From Blastopirellula sediminis (GTDB lineage Bacteria > Planctomycetota > Planctomycetia > Pirellulales > Pirellulaceae), in assembly GCF_020966755.1 (NCBI RefSeq), contig NZ_JAJKFT010000004.1, forward strand, positions 372,001 through 436,000: DNA of 64,000 nucleotides, read 5' to 3'. Of this stretch, positions 1 through 64,000 are shown piece after piece; the first letter of the stretch is position 1, and every line of letters begins with the position of its first letter. The position numbers and the translations under genes are program-made. The notes under the pieces are model-generated. The model was not told the origin of the DNA, did not search any database, and saw only the letters and a program-made list of their open reading frames with translations.

Positions 1-1423
1 AGGCGTAGGCCAGCGCGAATCCGGTGAAATAGTGGTCGTCTTGCTCCGTCTTCCTTCCAAAGCGACCAATGTTGAACGTGACCTGTCCTTGCAGTGGAAT
101 CTGTATATGAAAGTTGTCGACTGGTCCGTTTTCGCTGATGACGGGACGATCGCCGGGAGAATTCTTAAATGGGGGACGCTGGGTGAAGACGAACGGCATG
201 GCGACTTCCCGGACGATCTGGTCCCCAATCTTCGCGCGGATTACGCAATCGATGGCGCCCTTTCGGGGATCATCGACATGGACCGTCGAAGAATCCCAGG
301 TCGCTGCAGGAAGGAGTTCTTCTCCCCGGTGCAGGTCTTTCACGGAGACCTTGACGCCTCGTCCGCTGCGCAGCTCGAGACTCGCTTCGTCATTAGGAAT
401 GCGGACGAGTCGAGCGACGTCTGACAACCGAGTTCCCGTCGCCCCATGAATCACACGGTCATCGATTTTCAGCAGTTCCTTTTCGGTCGGCTTTGTAAAG
501 GAATGCCCGCGACGCAATAGCAAGGGAAGATCCTTGCGCGGGTCTGGCGTCAGGTGAACGACAACTTCGTCCTTGTCTGCGGGCAATGAAGTTTGCGTGG
601 TGCGCCATGTCTCGCCATCGGCGCTTACGGCGACTTCAATGGTATCAGGACGAACGGCGCCAAAGTCGGTTATGACGCGAACCTGAAAATCCATCGCTTG
701 ATTGCGATCTTCCCACTTACTCACATCGTTTGCGGCGCTTAGGCCGGGTTGCTTCAGGAACTCGCGCAGCCGCTGGTAGCTGATCGCAAAACTTGTCCCT
801 ACCGCAGGAAACGCCATCTTCCTGGCGACCACTCCCAGGACGCGACCTTCCGCATCGACAAGTGGGCCGCCCGAGTTGCCAGGGTTGACCCCTGCGTTGA
901 ACTTGATGTCGGTGTAGTTCCCGTTTTCGTCTTGCGGCAGGGAAGTGATCTGGCCTGGATCGCGCGTGATTGATGGGTTCTTCCCCTCGGGAAGCGTCCC
1001 GAAGGGAAAACCGAAGGCGAGGACTTCATCTCCCAGTTCAAGCTTTTCATTTTCGGCGAGAATATCGAGCGTCGGCCAGTCGTTTCGACCGTCGACTTTC
1101 AACAAGGCGAGGTCCCACTCGAGATTGGTGCTAAGCAGCTTCGCTTTGACTTCTTGCTGTTTGTCCCCTTGTCCGGAGTTGATGACCAGCGTCGTCTCGC
1201 TGAGTAACTCGAGTTGCAGCAAAACGTGACAGTTGGTGACGAAGAGGCCGTCGGCGCGAATGCAAAACGCGGTCCCTTCGCCAAGCTCCGTCTGTTTGAC
1301 GAACGCCGTCGCCGCCGCTGCTTGCTGATTGACGTTCTGGGCACGAGCGAAGCCGCAGCAACTTAACAAAAGTGCGATGGCGATGACTTGAGGCGTTTGG
1401 CGTGCGATGCGTTCCAGCTTCAT
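1..1423 (-). CDS. Secreted trypsin-like serine protease, C-terminus outside window
   Basis: The reading frame opens with ATG at 1423 and stays open to the window edge, so the 3' end is missing. It begins with a signal peptide (MKLERIARQTPQ, then a hydrophobic run ending in FARAQ). The S1C/DegP-like triad is visible: His in TNCHVLL near residue 67, Asp in NLEWDLALLKV near 104, and Ser in NPGNSGGPL near 160. This predicts a periplasmic or exported endopeptidase. The part beyond about residue 190 is a long beta-rich region with no PDZ domain I can identify; it may sense or bind substrate. The preceding gene on this strand ends 17 nt upstream, so the two are probably cotranscribed. Exact substrate and length are unknown. 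Confidence 0.85.
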   Translation of the reverse strand, partial: MKLERIARQTPQVIAIALLLSCCGFARAQNVNQQAAAATAFVKQTELGEGTAFCIRADGLFVTNCHVLLQLELLSETTLVINSGQGDKQQEVKAKLLSTNLEWDLALLKVDGRNDWPTLDILAENEKLELGDEVLAFGFPFGTLPEGKNPSITRDPGQITSLPQDENGNYTDIKFNAGVNPGNSGGPLVDAEGRVLGVVARKMAFPAVGTSFAISYQRLREFLKQPGLSAANDVSKWEDRNQAMDFQVRVITDFGAVRPDTIEVAVSADGETWRTTQTSLPADKDEVVVHLTPDPRKDLPLLLRRGHSFTKPTEKELLKIDDRVIHGATGTRLSDVARLVRIPNDEASLELRSGRGVKVSVKDLHRGEELLPAATWDSSTVHVDDPRKGAIDCVIRAKIGDQIVREVAMPFVFTQRPPFKNSPGDRPVISENGPVDNFHIQIPLQGQVTFNIGRFGRKTEQDDHYFTGFALAYA

Positions 1424-56041: not shown

Positions 56042-56590
56042 TTAGTTGGTCGTTCGATCGAACAGAACGACATGTTTATCTGGCGCCAGAGCGCTGGCGT
56101 AGAATTCAAAATCGACGTGTTGCTGCAGGAAGGGCGTAGCCCCGCACCCAGGGACCAGGCATTCCAGCTTTCTCTGTTTGGGACACTTGCCGAACTTACA
56201 AATACGCCCCAGATATCGATCGGTTTCCGGCTCAAGCAGGAACATTTCGACCTCATGAGGAGCGACGCCGAGACTTTGTTCGTCGTGCAGTGAATTCAGC
56301 GCCTTCGCTTTCGCCCGCTGTAATTCATGGAGGCGAGAGAGATCTCGAATCCAGACCGCGAGGTCGACGTCTTTGCATTCGTGGTAAACCTCAATCTTGG
56401 CGCGTCGAAAGGCGGTGAAGCGAGGAATCTCCTTCCACAGCGGAACGGCGACCGACCCGAACAGCGCGACTTTCTCAACTTCCGGAAATGGCTGCAGCGA
56501 TCGGGCGACCCACTCGGCCGCGATGCGGAACTTTTGTTGACGCTGCAACAAATAGTCGTTTTGCGATTCGATTTCGGCTTTGGTCGGCAT
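56042..56590 (-). CDS. Nucleotidyltransferase-like (MNT-type) protein
   Basis: A 182-residue protein. It has the minimal nucleotidyltransferase pattern: VEKVALFGSVAVPLWKE (the GS motif, residue ~45), then KDVDLAVWIRDLSRLHELQ with the two aspartates. A cysteine-rich C-terminal stretch follows (RICKFGKCPKQRKLECLVPGC), possibly a zinc knuckle. Standing alone in this class it could be an antitoxin-like or nucleotide-transfer enzyme; no HEPN partner is seen. A terminator-like hairpin lies 80 nt upstream. Confidence 0.78.
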   Translation of the reverse strand: MPTKAEIESQNDYLLQRQQKFRIAAEWVARSLQPFPEVEKVALFGSVAVPLWKEIPRFTAFRRAKIEVYHECKDVDLAVWIRDLSRLHELQRAKAKALNSLHDEQSLGVAPHEVEMFLLEPETDRYLGRICKFGKCPKQRKLECLVPGCGATPFLQQHVDFEFYASALAPDKHVVLFDRTTN

Positions 56591-57543: not shown

Positions 57544-58857
57544 TCATCGCATCGCCTCCTCGCGAGCCTTCATCGGAATTGGCGAGTCACCGGTTCTTTC
57601 CAAGATCGCTTGTTTGCCCGTGAACCTCTGGAATCGGTCGACGATAATGTCACAATACAGCGTGTCAAGTTCCATCAAGTAGGCGTTGCGTCCGGTCTGC
57701 TCGGCGCCAATCAAGGTCGAGCCGCTCCCACCGAATAGATCCAGGACGTTCTCACCTGCGACGGTGGAGTACTGCAGCGCACGAACCGCAAGTTCTGCAG
57801 GCTTGGCCGTTAGATGTTCCATCTGCTGGGGCGGAATCTTTTTCACGTGCCACAGGTCGGGGATATTTTTCGGTCCGTAAAAGCGATGGGCCGCACCTTC
57901 ACGCCAACCGTAGAAGCACCACTCATGCGCACCCATGAAGTCTTTCCGAGTGAGAACAGGGTGCTGTTTATCCCAGATAATCGACTGGCTGAAATAGAGT
58001 CCGTGCTTTTTCAAAACAGGCGGGTAGTTCGCACAATTCGCATATCCGCCCCAGAGATAGAAGGCTCGTCCGGGAGTGAGAACGCGGGCCATATTTCCAA
58101 ACCACGCGTCGAGCAAGCGATCGAACTCCTCCTCCGAAACGAAGTCATTCTCCAGCGGGCGATCCTTCGCCCGCAACTTCTTCGGCGTTCCATCCGGCTT
58201 GCGTCTGCTCGGGTCGGTGAAGCTGCTATTACCGGCCGCGATGGCGTTCTTCGATCTCGGTTCAACCTTCACGTTATAGGGAGGATCGCTGTTCACGCAA
58301 TGAATGGCAGCGCCGTTTAGGAGCCGATCAACATCTTCCGGTTTCGAGCTATCTCCACAGAGCAATCGATGTTCGCCTAAGATCCATAAGTCGCCAGGTT
58401 GGGAGACGGCCTGATCCGGTTGCTCGGGGATTTCATCGGGATCGGTAAGGCCTTCTTTGCCGTCGGGGTGGAGCATCTTCGCCAGTTCGTCTGCACTGAA
58501 GCCGAGCAGCCCAAGGTCATAGCCGAGCGATTGTAAATCCGCCAATTCCAAGGGAAGTAGATTCTCGTCCCATTCCGCAAGAGTCGCCGTCTGGTTATCA
58601 GCGATACGGTAGGCTTTGATCTGCTCCGGCGTCATATCTGTGGCTACATGGATGGGAACCAACTCGAAGCCCAGTTTCTGGGCCGCTTTGAGGCGGGTGT
58701 GACCGACAATGATCACGCCCTGATCATCCACGACGATCGGCTGTCGAAACCCAAACTCCTGAAGACTTCGGGCTACCGCTTCGACCGCGCCATCATTGAC
58801 GCGGGGATTGCCGGGATACGGCGTAACGTCAGAAATCTTCCACTGTTCGATCTTCAT
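57544..58857 (-). CDS. ParB-like nuclease domain fused to site-specific DNA methyltransferase
   Basis: A 437-residue protein from ATG 58857; the longer frame adds 40 residues without support. The N-terminal ParB/Srx-like domain is seen in ISDVTPYPGNPRVNDGAVEA and IIVGHTRLKAAQKLGFE (residues ~9-70). From ~155 comes an amino-methyltransferase domain: the catalytic DPPY motif at 191-194 (NSDPPYNVKVEP) and the AdoMet site LDLFGGSGSTLIGAEQTGR near 375. Such fusions are common in prophages and mobile elements, and methylate N6-adenine or N4-cytosine. No restriction enzyme gene is nearby, so it is probably an orphan methylase. Confidence 0.9.
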   Translation of the reverse strand: MKIEQWKISDVTPYPGNPRVNDGAVEAVARSLQEFGFRQPIVVDDQGVIIVGHTRLKAAQKLGFELVPIHVATDMTPEQIKAYRIADNQTATLAEWDENLLPLELADLQSLGYDLGLLGFSADELAKMLHPDGKEGLTDPDEIPEQPDQAVSQPGDLWILGEHRLLCGDSSKPEDVDRLLNGAAIHCVNSDPPYNVKVEPRSKNAIAAGNSSFTDPSRRKPDGTPKKLRAKDRPLENDFVSEEEFDRLLDAWFGNMARVLTPGRAFYLWGGYANCANYPPVLKKHGLYFSQSIIWDKQHPVLTRKDFMGAHEWCFYGWREGAAHRFYGPKNIPDLWHVKKIPPQQMEHLTAKPAELAVRALQYSTVAGENVLDLFGGSGSTLIGAEQTGRNAYLMELDTLYCDIIVDRFQRFTGKQAILERTGDSPIPMKAREEAMR

Positions 58858-58991
58858 GAGACGGAGCTCACCTATGCACAAATGATTCGTGCTGGTAGCT
58901 CCGAGATGCGGAGTGCGGCTCGTTGCGAGCGGCGGGCAAGAGAACCAGAGACCTCCTGCCACTGAAGATGTCTTCATTCTAACCGAAAATG

Positions 58992-61781: not shown

Positions 61782-63899
61782 TTACTCGTTGACGACAGCG
61801 CTAAGCTCCCAGGAAATTCCGTCTAGAGGTTGGTACTTGGGGTGGTTCCCGAAGGTGGTGTATTTTGTCAGGTGCTCCGCAAGAGAACTGTCAGCATGCT
61901 TGATTTGATTATCGATGACACGCTTTACCGCGCTGCGAAAACTGTCGCGAATGTTCTTTTGTTTGTCGCCACTTTGTTTGAGTCGTCCGCCAATGCCTAC
62001 CGAAGTATGTATGGTTGATAGGAAAGCTTGTATTTCAACTTGTAGCTCACGAACCAGCACCTCGTTGTTGTCAGCTCGAGCGCGATCGATCTCACCTAAT
62101 AGTCGCTCTGCTTCGTCGCGATATTGATCAATTGCTTGCTTGTCCGAGATGGCGCCCAACGTATCAAGAAGTGGATTGTGTTTTGACGTAAGTCCATCTT
62201 CGATGGCAGTTCTTGCGACGATTAGATAGTTGCAGTATTCCGCAGCTGATCCGCACACAATTTCAACAGCACTTATTGCTTCACCAGGCCTTGAAAGCAA
62301 CTGGTGAATATAACCAACCCCCTTGTGCCCAAGGACAATAAACTCCTTTCCTCCCTGAAATCGCACTTGCCATGCCTCGCCTTTCCGCCTGAACACGTTT
62401 TCCGGTAGATCTTCTTTTCCAAGCTTCGCGGAAACGGTGCAGGGCAGGCGAGATTCGTACACAATCCGAAGCATCGAATCTGGTGGTAAACTACGTTGAC
62501 GAATGGCCCTCCCATGCTCAGCGAGCATTTTGTCAATTACGCGATTCACCTCCCCTGAATGTTTTTTATACATGTCGAAGCATCTCGGTAATCGCGCTCC
62601 AACGCTTTCATCTAGGTAAGGCAGTGCTCTAGCCACTTCCGGGAACTTCTTCAGGAATTGCAGCGGACCATCGATTAGGTCCACCTGATTGGCGCGCTCA
62701 AGATAGTTGGCGAACAACGTTTTGTCTTCGTTAATATGTTCGCTCTTGGAGCGACTTTCGGTGAAGATATCCATTCGGTATTGTTCGAGCGGATCATGGT
62801 TTTCCAGTCCGGCGGCAAGGATTGCAAATCGTCGATCAATGCATTGTGAGCAATAGCCGCAATGCGAATGTTGATTTGAGATCTCCCATGTGTGAGTGCA
62901 ACTAATTGAATCCGCGATGAGATCGGCACACTCCGCCCTGGAGATCAGTTTTGCTATCTCACCTTTCGTGTTCCAATGAAAGGGATTATCGACACAAAAC
63001 GGCTTACCGCTGACGAGAGTCAGTAATGACTGAAATCCGTGGATTACACGTGGATGGGTCGTCCTTGTCGCATTGCCGCCGACGACATGGGCGCAAATCG
63101 GCAAATTCAAACTGATAACGCCATTCTCGTAGAACCGAACATGAGATAACCCCAGCATCTCCGCGATGGTTGCCCCCAAAGTCACGAAGAGAAACGAGCG
63201 ACTTCTTTGAGTGTATTCACGATTCATCGATTTCTTCTTGTTCACCGTGACACGAACGTGGCTCGGTAGATTATTCGTTGCCTTGGTGTTGAGTAATCGT
63301 CGCAGTTTCTCGTAGCGGATGTCGAGCTTTTGCGTCGCGCGATGATTTACAAGTAAGACTGGATTCTTCTGATTCACTACTTCTTCAACGGCGCCTCCTA
63401 CAGAATCCACGCCCCCAGAAAACATGACTACCCGCTCCGGTAAATTCCGACGAACTTCGTCATCGGTGAAGTTTAAGAAAGTCTGAAATGAAGACTGGTG
63501 TTTAATTTCCGAGAAGATAAAGTCGTAATGATCATCGGACAGGAACGAGAGCGTCTCACAAAGAACCTTCTGGGTTTCTGCTGATCGCCAAAATTCGAGG
63601 TCGCGTACTGAAATGAAAAAATGAAACCGTCGACGCCAGAAGCTGCCAAACGACTCGACGTCTCTGGCGCCGCGTGGGTTAGTTTGATCGGCTGCAAAAA
63701 CATACGTAGCGATGTCGAGTAAATCCCGAAATCGAGCCGGTACCTCCTTGTACAGCCGCTTCTGAATTTCATCGATTCGCAGATTGAGCTTGCAATCATC
63801 GTCGGAGCCATAGATATGAAGACGAGTCGTGTTAGATTCGCATTCGGTCGAGAGTTGCGGCAATGAATCGCCACATATGATGTAGCGATCAATGTCCAT
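61782..63899 (-). CDS. QueC-like PP-loop protein with C-terminal HTH-like domain (anti-phage type candidate)
   Basis: A 705-residue protein; ATG 63899 has GGAG about 9 nt upstream, with ATGs at 63905 and 63929 as alternatives. Counting from 63929, the PP-loop ATPase motif FSGGVDS is at 171-176 and the QueC-type zinc cysteines are C344, C357, C360, C363 (SISCTHTW; HCGYCSQCIDRRFA). Between them TQRSRSFLFVTLGA and FYENGVISLNLPI match the QueC-like branch seen in defence systems rather than queuosine synthesis. After ~400 the chain is helical, with a winged-helix-like block (WQVRFQGGKEFIVLGHKG; LLSRPGEAISAVEI) and a coiled coil near 610-660. Coupled by overlap to the upstream gene. Confidence 0.75.
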   Translation of the reverse strand: MDIDRYIICGDSLPQLSTECESNTTRLHIYGSDDDCKLNLRIDEIQKRLYKEVPARFRDLLDIATYVFAADQTNPRGARDVESFGSFWRRRFHFFISVRDLEFWRSAETQKVLCETLSFLSDDHYDFIFSEIKHQSSFQTFLNFTDDEVRRNLPERVVMFSGGVDSVGGAVEEVVNQKNPVLLVNHRATQKLDIRYEKLRRLLNTKATNNLPSHVRVTVNKKKSMNREYTQRSRSFLFVTLGATIAEMLGLSHVRFYENGVISLNLPICAHVVGGNATRTTHPRVIHGFQSLLTLVSGKPFCVDNPFHWNTKGEIAKLISRAECADLIADSISCTHTWEISNQHSHCGYCSQCIDRRFAILAAGLENHDPLEQYRMDIFTESRSKSEHINEDKTLFANYLERANQVDLIDGPLQFLKKFPEVARALPYLDESVGARLPRCFDMYKKHSGEVNRVIDKMLAEHGRAIRQRSLPPDSMLRIVYESRLPCTVSAKLGKEDLPENVFRRKGEAWQVRFQGGKEFIVLGHKGVGYIHQLLSRPGEAISAVEIVCGSAAEYCNYLIVARTAIEDGLTSKHNPLLDTLGAISDKQAIDQYRDEAERLLGEIDRARADNNEVLVRELQVEIQAFLSTIHTSVGIGGRLKQSGDKQKNIRDSFRSAVKRVIDNQIKHADSSLAEHLTKYTTFGNHPKYQPLDGISWELSAVVNE

Positions 63900-64000
63900 T
63901 GGCATTTGCTCCAACCCGTAACTCGTCATTGATTTTCTTCAAAGCCCAAGAGGCAAACCCCTGAACCGAATCCCGTGAGATTGCTCCATGTTCTTGGTAG
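63889..64000 (-). CDS. C-terminal end of a gene continuing beyond the window
   Basis: The frame reads HGAISRDSVQGFASWALKKI and ends ...GANANGH at TGA 63889-63891, overlapping the QueC-like start by 11 nt or more. Only about 37 residues are visible, so no family can be given. The overlap indicates one operon; if the QueC-like gene belongs to a Qat-like system this would be the position of the preceding component. Confidence 0.55.
   Translation of the reverse strand, partial: YQEHGAISRDSVQGFASWALKKINDELRVGANANGH

What the first reader, a model, noticed from the sequence alone, without database searches (positions are those of the whole stretch)
61782..64000. QueC-like PP-loop protein with HTH-like C-terminus, coupled to an unseen upstream gene
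SGGVDS and the four-cysteine zinc site show a QueC-type enzyme, but at over 700 residues it is far longer than QueC (~230). No other queuosine genes are near, and it sits in accessory DNA next to a decayed replication module. QueC-like proteins occur in Qat and type IV CBASS defence systems. The extra C-terminal winged-helix-like region and coiled coil make this an unusual fusion.
Basis: partly seen in the sequence, partly recalled or inferred. Interest (0 to 1): 0.7.

Follow-up and report, generated by a model that had tools for sequence, protein, structure and literature searches.

The report
Compact two-gene Qat-like defence cassette
The gene is half of a widespread two-gene cassette, often found beside phage-type integrases, in which a QatC-like enzyme fused to a probable DNA-handling domain is paired with a small partner protein whose invariant Met-Gly start looks like the site it modifies, probably to defend bacteria against phages.

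Summary
The ORF is real (window 61782-63929, minus strand, 715 aa; likely start residue 11, base 63899). Residues 13-492 are a QatC: VIA-align Z 31.6 to crystal QatC, catalytic and zinc residues kept. The unseen upstream gene encodes a 264-aa protein starting MGHTRLG, without Pfam or NCBIfam match. A relative's model matches QatB, QatC's partner (Z 14.5, next 6.6), though sequence comparison finds nothing. Scans baited with the enzyme gave 160 loci; a partner gene is upstream in 154, and all 143 that align to residue 1 start Met-Gly, 141 Met-Gly-His. QatA and QatD references hit none of 81 loci. The C-terminus is swappable: mostly one domain shared with an actinobacterial TPR protein, otherwise winged-helix or other HTH domains, unnamed tails, or in a Leptospira plasmid a DpnII/MboI-type nuclease domain. 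A serine recombinase lies upstream in 49 of 54 viral-contig and 36 of 65 genome loci with enough flank. It is a new compact variant of the QatBC core, not qatABCD itself. Conjugation and defence are inferred.

The parts
61782..63899 (-). QatC-like enzyme with a C-terminal extra domain (705 aa from the likely start Met11; 715 aa to the first ATG at 63929)
62454..63893 (-). QatC-like part, residues 13-492: N-terminal extension, QueC-type PP-loop core, zinc site, C-terminal helices
   Evidence: VIA-align 2 to 9y02_B, Z 31.6, 398 aligned, 3.4 A, model 13..492; Foldseek E 2.3e-19 to 9y01_B
63402..63419 (-). SGGVDS ATP pyrophosphate loop (residues 171-176)
   Evidence: S171, G172, G173, D175 and S176 each 77/77 in the family and 8/8 in canonical QatC
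63051..63068 (-). TRTTHP loop (residues 288-293), equivalent to T278/T280 of P. aeruginosa QatC in place of the CDG-recognising Tyr/Asp of QueC and Cap9
   Evidence: T288 70/77, R289 and T290 77/77, H292 and P293 77/77; alignment to PDB QatC; meaning of the threonines from PMC13279940
62841..62900 (-). zinc site Cys344, Cys357, Cys360, Cys363 (C-x12-CGxC-xx-C-xx-RR); family signature CSQC against CxPC in most canonical QatC
   Evidence: each Cys 77/77 and 8/8; Q362 77/77 against P in 7 of 8 canonical; zinc binding itself from PMC13279940
61785..62417 (-). extra C-terminal domain, residues 505-715: short strands, helix pair, long helices; perhaps winged helix plus coiled coil
   Evidence: one single-linkage BLAST cluster holds this tail and those of 62 of 80 genome loci; hhalign 99.6% to the C-terminus of a Streptomyces TPR protein; secondary structure of the model
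63889..64000 (-). 3' end of the upstream QatB-like partner gene (264 aa; the rest lies beyond the window as L006:6890-7684), protein start MGHTRLGALPRTRAW
   Evidence: fold of a 64% identical relative

Best explanation
A natural, self-contained two-gene relative of the QatBC core of the Qat anti-phage system, carried as cargo near a serine recombinase in many of its occurrences. The upstream protein is a highly diverged QatB. After removal of Met1 its N-terminal glycine, on a roughly ten-residue flexible tail, enters the active site of the QatC-like enzyme. That enzyme uses ATP to activate a carboxylate, most likely of a 7-deazaguanine-like base, and joins it to the glycine. The C-terminal domain of the enzyme, swapped among DNA-binding-like and nuclease-like domains, brings the complex to DNA and stands in for QatA/QatD. 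The output is protection of the host, or of a resident prophage, against other phages. Shown by sequence or computation: gene pair, QatC fold and active site, invariant Met-Gly start, no QatA/QatD found, domain swapping, recombinase linkage. Supported by a predicted fold: QatB homology. Inferred: the conjugation reaction, the donor, DNA targeting, defence.
For: QatC: Z 31.6; D69, D81, R86, W98, SGGxDS, R242, R244, E268-N-G270, T290, H292-P293, four Cys: 77/77 in the family and 8/8 in canonical QatC. Partner: a hit upstream in 77 of 80 genome loci and 77 of 80 viral-contig loci, although the scans were baited with the enzyme alone. Start: 72 of 72 plus 71 of 71 that align to residue 1 begin Met-Gly, 141 of 143 Met-Gly-His; in 43 representatives below 82% identity G2 and W15 are 43/43, against a mean column identity of 53%. 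Fold: a relative's partner (64% identical) models at pLDDT 86.7 with residues 1-10 below pLDDT 50 and matches QatB 9y01_A, Z 14.5, 209 of 215 residues, next entry outside QatB 6.6. QatA/QatB/QatD references hit 0 of 81 loci while QatC references hit 81 of 81, and two control loci hit for all four. Tails. Recombinase upstream: 36 of 65 genome and 49 of 54 viral-contig loci with at least 3 kb of upstream sequence. Published: QatBC alone defends against some phages and QatB Gly2 is essential (PMC13279940, parts 1-3 of 6 read).
Against: No profile similarity between partner and QatB (hhalign 0.6%), and the 50 rows shown by plain Foldseek hold no QatB (best E 0.13); the tool warns that helical models can reach Z 14 without kinship. 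The partner lacks QatB's 30-90-residue tail, so reach into the active site is unproven. QatC chemistry was not reconstituted in PMC13279940. Of 47 host genomes searched 5 lack a QueD-family hit; of these, Tepidicella xavieri and one Verrucomicrobia MAG also lack a canonical QueC and a clear QueE while keeping Tgt and a YhhQ-type transporter, so CDG may be absent there. Defence context is weak: type I restriction and other PADLOC models match some neighbours, but no model matches more than 3 of the 120 neighbouring ORFs scanned and no control set was run. The partner has no match in 50,697 named phage records, so the link to phages rests on predicted viral contigs and on recombinases.
Confidence: 0.67

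Rival explanations
1. A prophage or island regulator: the enzyme-modified partner and the HTH tail act together as a switch for the neighbouring recombinase or for lysogeny, and protection of the host is not its purpose.
For: HTH-type tails; recombinase within about 0.3-2.3 kb; eight viral contigs end within 20 bases of the enzyme ORF's end; no clear enrichment of known defence genes.
Against: Both orientations relative to the recombinase occur (27 opposite and 9 same in genome loci, 36 and 13 in viral contigs); 29 of 65 genome loci with enough flank have no such recombinase upstream; a nuclease-like tail stands in this position in one plasmid; the nearest studied relative is defensive (PMC13279940).
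Confidence: 0.15
2. A QatC whose donor is not CDG: the enzyme joins another carboxylate (amino acid, nucleotide derivative or other base) to the partner's glycine. This is compatible with the rest of the best explanation and not exclusive of it.
For: Threonines instead of the CDG-binding Tyr/Asp (0 of 77 carry the Y-x-D-C motif); two hosts with the cassette have no canonical QueC, no QueD-family hit and no clear QueE but keep Tgt and a YhhQ-type transporter; PMC13279940 also suggests a different substrate.
Against: 42 of 47 host genomes carry a QueD-family gene, which also fits CDG. Two further hosts (L036, L091) have canonical QueC but no QueD-family and no clear QueE hit, so the searches may miss pathway genes. 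QueE was sought with two models whose hits lie mostly below their cut-offs, also in hosts that have QueD (39-51 bits with TIGR03365 in two of them, 28 bits in T. xavieri). The cassette could be recent or silent in the two hosts.
Confidence: 0.4
3. A Cap9-type partner of a cyclase (type IV CBASS).
For: Shared QueC fold and N-terminal Gly logic (PMC11996544, abstract only; PMC13279940); a 182-aa ORF about 5 kb downstream has a weak Polbeta nucleotidyltransferase match below its cut-off (16.5 of 26.9 bits).
Against: The partner has no nucleotidyltransferase match and a relative's model matches QatB; Cap9 scores Z 12.5 against 31.6 for QatC; Cap9/QueC nucleobase motif absent.
Confidence: 0.02
4. 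A queuosine or other small-molecule enzyme.
For: PF06508 match.
Against: TIGR00364 QueC 21.6 bits against a cut-off of 150; the genome already has a canonical QueC elsewhere; almost always a protein partner upstream, and mobile context.
Confidence: 0.02

Closest known systems
QatB-QatC core of the qatABCD anti-phage system (PDB 9y01/9y02, 9zee, 9vlk/9vll)
   Same: QatC fold over residues 13-492 with the catalytic and zinc residues, overlapping upstream partner gene, partner (relative's model) with a QatB-like helical fold, low-confidence N-terminus and invariant Gly2
   Different: no QatA or QatD found; partner unrecognisable by sequence, MGH instead of MGTS, tail of about 10 residues instead of 30-90; CSQC instead of CxPC; extra swappable C-terminal region, about 90-450 residues in the members measured
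Cap9-CdnD of type IV CBASS (9nto)
   Same: QueC-type enzyme paired with a protein that starts Met-Gly
   Different: partner without a cyclase match and with a QatB-like model; CDG-recognition Tyr/Asp motif missing
Canonical QueC (3bl5, 2pg3)
   Same: PP-loop core and zinc site
   Different: YPDC motif missing, nearly 500 residues longer, no pathway genes found nearby
C-terminal domain of an actinobacterial TPR protein (WP_320592499.1, Streptomyces sp. KN37)
   Same: hhalign 99.6%, E 1.2e-24 over 185 columns
   Different: there it follows TPR-like repeats (weak Pfam TPR matches), not a QatC

Membership tests
qatABCD system | QatC fold and active site | tested here: met
   fold Z 31.6 over 398 residues, PADLOC QatC 1.5e-53, catalytic positions invariant
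qatABCD system | NCBIfam QatC equivalog score (NF041925, 280 bits) | tested here: not met
   211.3 bits
qatABCD system | QatB recognisable by sequence | tested here: not met
   NCBIfam none, hhalign 0.6%, tblastn with 8 QatB references 0 of 81 loci
qatABCD system | QatB fold with disordered N-terminal tail and N-terminal Gly | tested here: met
   on a 64% identical relative: VIA-align Z 14.5, 209 of 215 residues, next non-QatB 6.6; residues 1-10 below pLDDT 50; Gly2 143/143. Caveats: helical models can reach such Z, Foldseek's 50 shown rows lack QatB, and the tail is much shorter than QatB's
qatABCD system | QatA KAP ATPase in the operon | tested here: not met
   tblastn with 8 references: 0 of 81 loci within the held flanks, two control loci positive
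qatABCD system | QatD TatD nuclease in the operon | tested here: not met
   tblastn with 8 references: 0 of 81 loci within the held flanks, two control loci positive
qatABCD system | protection against phage; QatB Gly2 and QatC ATP site essential | not testable with these tools
   needs plaque assays and mutants
type IV CBASS | CD-NTase as the partner gene | tested here: not met
   partner has no Pfam or NCBIfam match and only a weak PADLOC DpdH match, E 0.0082; a relative's model matches QatB. Farther neighbours were not searched for CD-NTases specifically; one ORF 5 kb away has a sub-threshold Polbeta match
type IV CBASS | Cap9 CDG-recognition Tyr/Asp | tested here: not met
   Y-x-D-C motif 0 of 77
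type IV CBASS | Cap10 TGT-like protein | not tested
   not searched specifically in the neighbourhoods
QueC (queuosine) | QueC equivalog score and YPDC motif | tested here: not met
   TIGR00364 21.6 of 150.3 bits; motif 0 of 77

The most novel reading that the evidence does not exclude
A mobile protein-conjugation immunity family in which one enzyme both attaches a small molecule other than CDG to the N-terminal glycine of a short-tailed QatB-like protein and, through a swappable DNA-binding or nuclease domain, recognises or cuts invading DNA, so that a single two-gene cassette holds enzyme, substrate, sensor and in some versions effector.
Probability: 0.25. Interest if true: 0.85.

Novelty: new variant of a known kind. 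Interest (0 to 1): 0.68.

Why it matters
PMC13279940 leaves open which reaction QatC catalyses, what modification of QatB does, and what QatA and QatD are for. Here nature supplies a QatBC-like pair with no QatA/QatD found, with a very short and strongly conserved substrate start (consensus MGHxRLGxLPRTRxW) that should make a modified peptide easier to find, and with DNA-directed domains fused to the enzyme in several versions, which hints at what the missing parts do. The pair was seen in genomes labelled with ten phyla and in 80 predicted viral contigs examined. The enzyme falls below NCBIfam's QatC cut-off and the partner has no model in Pfam or NCBIfam. The family may account for part of the QatC-type sequences without qatA/qatD neighbours: PMC13329287 reports qatA beside only 34% of its QatC cluster (inference).

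Tried and rejected
CBASS/Cap9 and queuosine readings were tested and dropped. The hypothesis that the partner is a recognisable QatB failed on sequence. Plain Foldseek for the partner gave nothing at E 0.001 or better; the QatB match came only from the second look by VIA-align. An early partner profile (6 sequences) against PDB sequences gave only chance-level hits (cyanate hydratase, E 0.055 and worse). Pfam on ten alternative tails named one above its cut-off (Trans_reg_C, 36.5 of 26.2 bits, L099). The wider scan of 41 alternative tails at E 0.01 gave Trans_reg_C in 5, HTH_11 in 3 and other HTH-type families in 1-2 each; members can overlap, that table shows no cut-offs, non-HTH families appear too (CesT_Tir_1 in 2, DUF7890 in 1), and other tails matched nothing. 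Defence-island enrichment was not shown (339 PADLOC models match at least one of 120 neighbours, none more than 3; no control). QueD co-occurrence does not separate donors (42 of 47 hosts). The partner was not found in named phage records and in one plasmid record only. tRNA-Asn near the element was not followed as an attachment site. PHROGs was not run on the pair. The tree is the quick version, the careful search not finished; long branches (L013, canonical QatCs) make the depth of the split unsure. Of the scans only the best 80 of 212 genome relatives and 80 of 123 viral relatives were examined; whether the rest belong to this family is not known. Rows set aside: 3 of 80 genome loci without a partner hit (L067 and L074 start inside the enzyme gene at the contig edge; L033 has flank but no hit), 5 genome and 6 viral partners that do not align to residue 1 (contig ends, fragments or a shifted frame), 3 viral loci cut at the enzyme. 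Neighbour scans used 120 of the 139 ORFs collected from 38 genome loci and 96 of 126 from 29 viral loci. L014 was left out of the tree (short core).
Full report
Observation. The window lies at G000:C4:372001-436000. The reported ORF is open for 715 codons at 61782-63929 on the minus strand. Most homologues align from residue 11, and Met11 (base 63899) gives the 11-nt overlap with the upstream stop that is the commonest spacing in the family. The SGGVDS loop and four cysteines are present. G+C is 48-49% in the two 1-kb bins over most of the enzyme gene and 52-60% in the other bins of the 18-kb locus.

Enzyme. PADLOC QatC 1.5e-53 and NCBIfam QatC 211 bits, short of its cut-off of 280, place it near QatC; PDB QatC sequences match at 9e-30 over residues 69-403. 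An AlphaFold model (28 sequences, pLDDT 80) matches crystal QatC with Foldseek E 2.3e-19 and VIA-align Z 31.6, 398 residues, 3.4 A, model 13..492; QueC and Cap9 reach 12.5. In 77 family members and 8 canonical QatCs these positions are the same in every row: D69, D81, R86, W98, the ATP loop, R242, R244, E268-N269-G270, T290, H292-P293, T321, four Cys. The Tyr-x-Asp-Cys nucleobase motif of QueC and Cap9 is in 0 of 77 and 0 of 8. Differences from QatC are Gln362 (77/77; Pro in 7 of 8 QatC) and usually His457 (72/77; Gly in 6 of 8). On a quick tree the 77 stand apart from the 8 canonical QatCs (support 99); the careful tree was not finished and long branches are present.

Partner. Upstream, overlapping, lies a 264-aa protein (L006:6890-7684) without a Pfam or NCBIfam match; PADLOC gave one weak match, DpdH at E 0.0082. 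It occurs in 6 of 294 genomes of the phylum, own genome included and one of them a 95-residue match, and in a Leptospira noguchii plasmid, again just before a QatC-like gene. To avoid circularity the wide scans used the enzyme as bait: 80 genome loci kept of 212 relatives and 80 viral-contig loci kept of 123. A partner hit is upstream in 77 of 80 and 77 of 80. Where the alignment reaches residue 1 (72 and 71), every one starts Met-Gly, 71 and 70 of them Met-Gly-His, the other two Met-Gly-Asn. Many loci are near copies; in 43 representatives below 82% identity G2 and W15 are 43/43, H3 42/43, V18 42/43, L9 41/43, P10 39/43, against a mean column identity of 53%.

Partner fold. VIA-align puts QatB first: 9y01_A Z 14.5, 3.8 A, 209 of 215 residues, 12% identity; the next entry other than 9y02 is a dynamin-related protein at 6.6. 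The 50 rows shown by Foldseek lack it, hhalign sees no sequence kinship (0.6%), and helical models can score about 14 by arrangement alone (note). The margin over the next entry, the coverage, and the fact that the match is QatC's own partner make homology likely but not proven. QatB's resolved part begins at residue 64 (PMC13279940), this model's confident part at about 10-20, so the tail is far shorter.

QatA and QatD. Eight references each of QatA, QatB and QatD (regions) hit none of 81 loci (80 plus L006) within the held flanks (up to 5 kb; shorter at contig ends), while QatC references hit all 81 and two control loci hit for all. PMC13279940 (parts 1-3 of 6 and a term search read) shows that engineered QatBC without QatA/QatD still protects against phage lambda-vir, and that QatB Gly2 is essential; this family looks like a natural QatBC-only form. 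PMC13329287 (parts 1-3 of 5 read) reports qatA beside 34% of its QatC cluster.

C-terminal domain. By single-linkage BLAST clustering, the tails of 62 of 80 genome loci and 52 of 80 viral-contig loci form one group with the window. It is homologous to the C-terminus of a Streptomyces protein with TPR-like repeats (tblastn 7e-12; Pfam TPR matches weak; hhalign 99.6%). Other members carry tails outside this group: 41 were scanned, giving Trans_reg_C in 5 and several HTH families in 1-3 each at E 0.01, and nothing for others; one was confirmed above its cut-off (L099, 36.5 of 26.2 bits). The Leptospira plasmid form carries REase_DpnII-MboI, 38.3 of 27 bits. On the quick tree the tail labels need 13 changes, 7 being the least possible for 8 groups. 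So the tail position is a swap site, in the named cases for DNA-directed domains. That the window's own tail binds DNA is an inference.

Mobile context. Upstream of the pair lie a 144-aa ORF (HTH-like by eye, no Pfam match), a 528-aa serine recombinase and DUF2924. With at least 3 kb of upstream sequence, a relative of this recombinase is upstream in 36 of 65 genome and 49 of 54 viral-contig loci, 0.3-2.3 kb away in either orientation, and DUF2924 in 34 of 65 and 49 of 54. Among 96 neighbours in 29 viral-contig loci PHROGs names integrase in 22 and terminase or tail proteins in single cases. The partner has no match in named phage records, so 'prophage' is likely for some copies and unproven in general. 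Enrichment of known defence genes was not shown.

Donor question. The window's genome has a canonical QueC, two QueD-family hits and a QueE-like hit below model cut-offs. Of 47 host genomes searched (48 of the 80 genome loci were sent, L021 is not held) 42 have a QueD-family gene. The five without were tested further. Tepidicella xavieri (L048, intact cassette) and a Verrucomicrobia MAG (L057) also lack a canonical QueC and a clear QueE yet have Tgt and a YhhQ-type transporter, the pattern of a preQ0 salvager; a third (L087, MAG) lacks all of these; two (L036, L091) have a canonical QueC without a QueD-family or clear QueE hit, which warns that the searches may miss pathway genes. If the cassette works in the first two, CDG is not its donor. 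Their completeness is not known here, so this is a lead.

Novelty. Searches for QatB/QatC/qatABCD, QueC with QatC and fusion, and deazaguanylation listed no paper that I could recognise as describing this pair; only PMC13279940, PMC13329287 and the abstract of PMC11996544 were opened, the library lacks most subscription papers, and the two other QatBC structure papers cited in PMC13279940 were not read. Verdict: a new variant of a known kind, working like QatBC, not a member of qatABCD as defined.

Noticed in passing
window 57544-58977 (-): 477-aa protein with ParB-type N-terminus and N6/N4 DNA methylase domain (PADLOC MTase_II 2.5e-103); probably part of the same accessory region.
   Followed up: no
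   Followed up: no
window 56042-56590 (-): 182-aa ORF with a weak nucleotidyltransferase match (Polbeta 16.5 bits, below cut-off; PADLOC PDC-M63A E 0.0055).
   Followed up: no
L006:7831-8265 (-), about window 64830-65264: 144-aa ORF, HTH-like by eye, between recombinase and cassette; relatives upstream in 9 of 65 genome and 15 of 54 viral-contig loci with flank.
   Followed up: partly
L013:8001-10645: Leptospira noguchii plasmid version: QatC-like enzyme fused to a REase_DpnII-MboI domain, partner starts MGHERLG.
   Followed up: partly
L115, L119, L120, L126, L128, L135, L140, L141: Eight IMG/VR contigs end within 20 bases of the enzyme ORF's end, as if the cassette marks the end of the called provirus; L140's ORF runs off the contig without a stop.
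   Followed up: no
L014:5968-7224: Rhodobacteraceae plasmid with an enzyme ORF lacking its N-terminus, with an IS3 transposase gene just upstream in place of a partner: probably a decaying copy.
   Followed up: no
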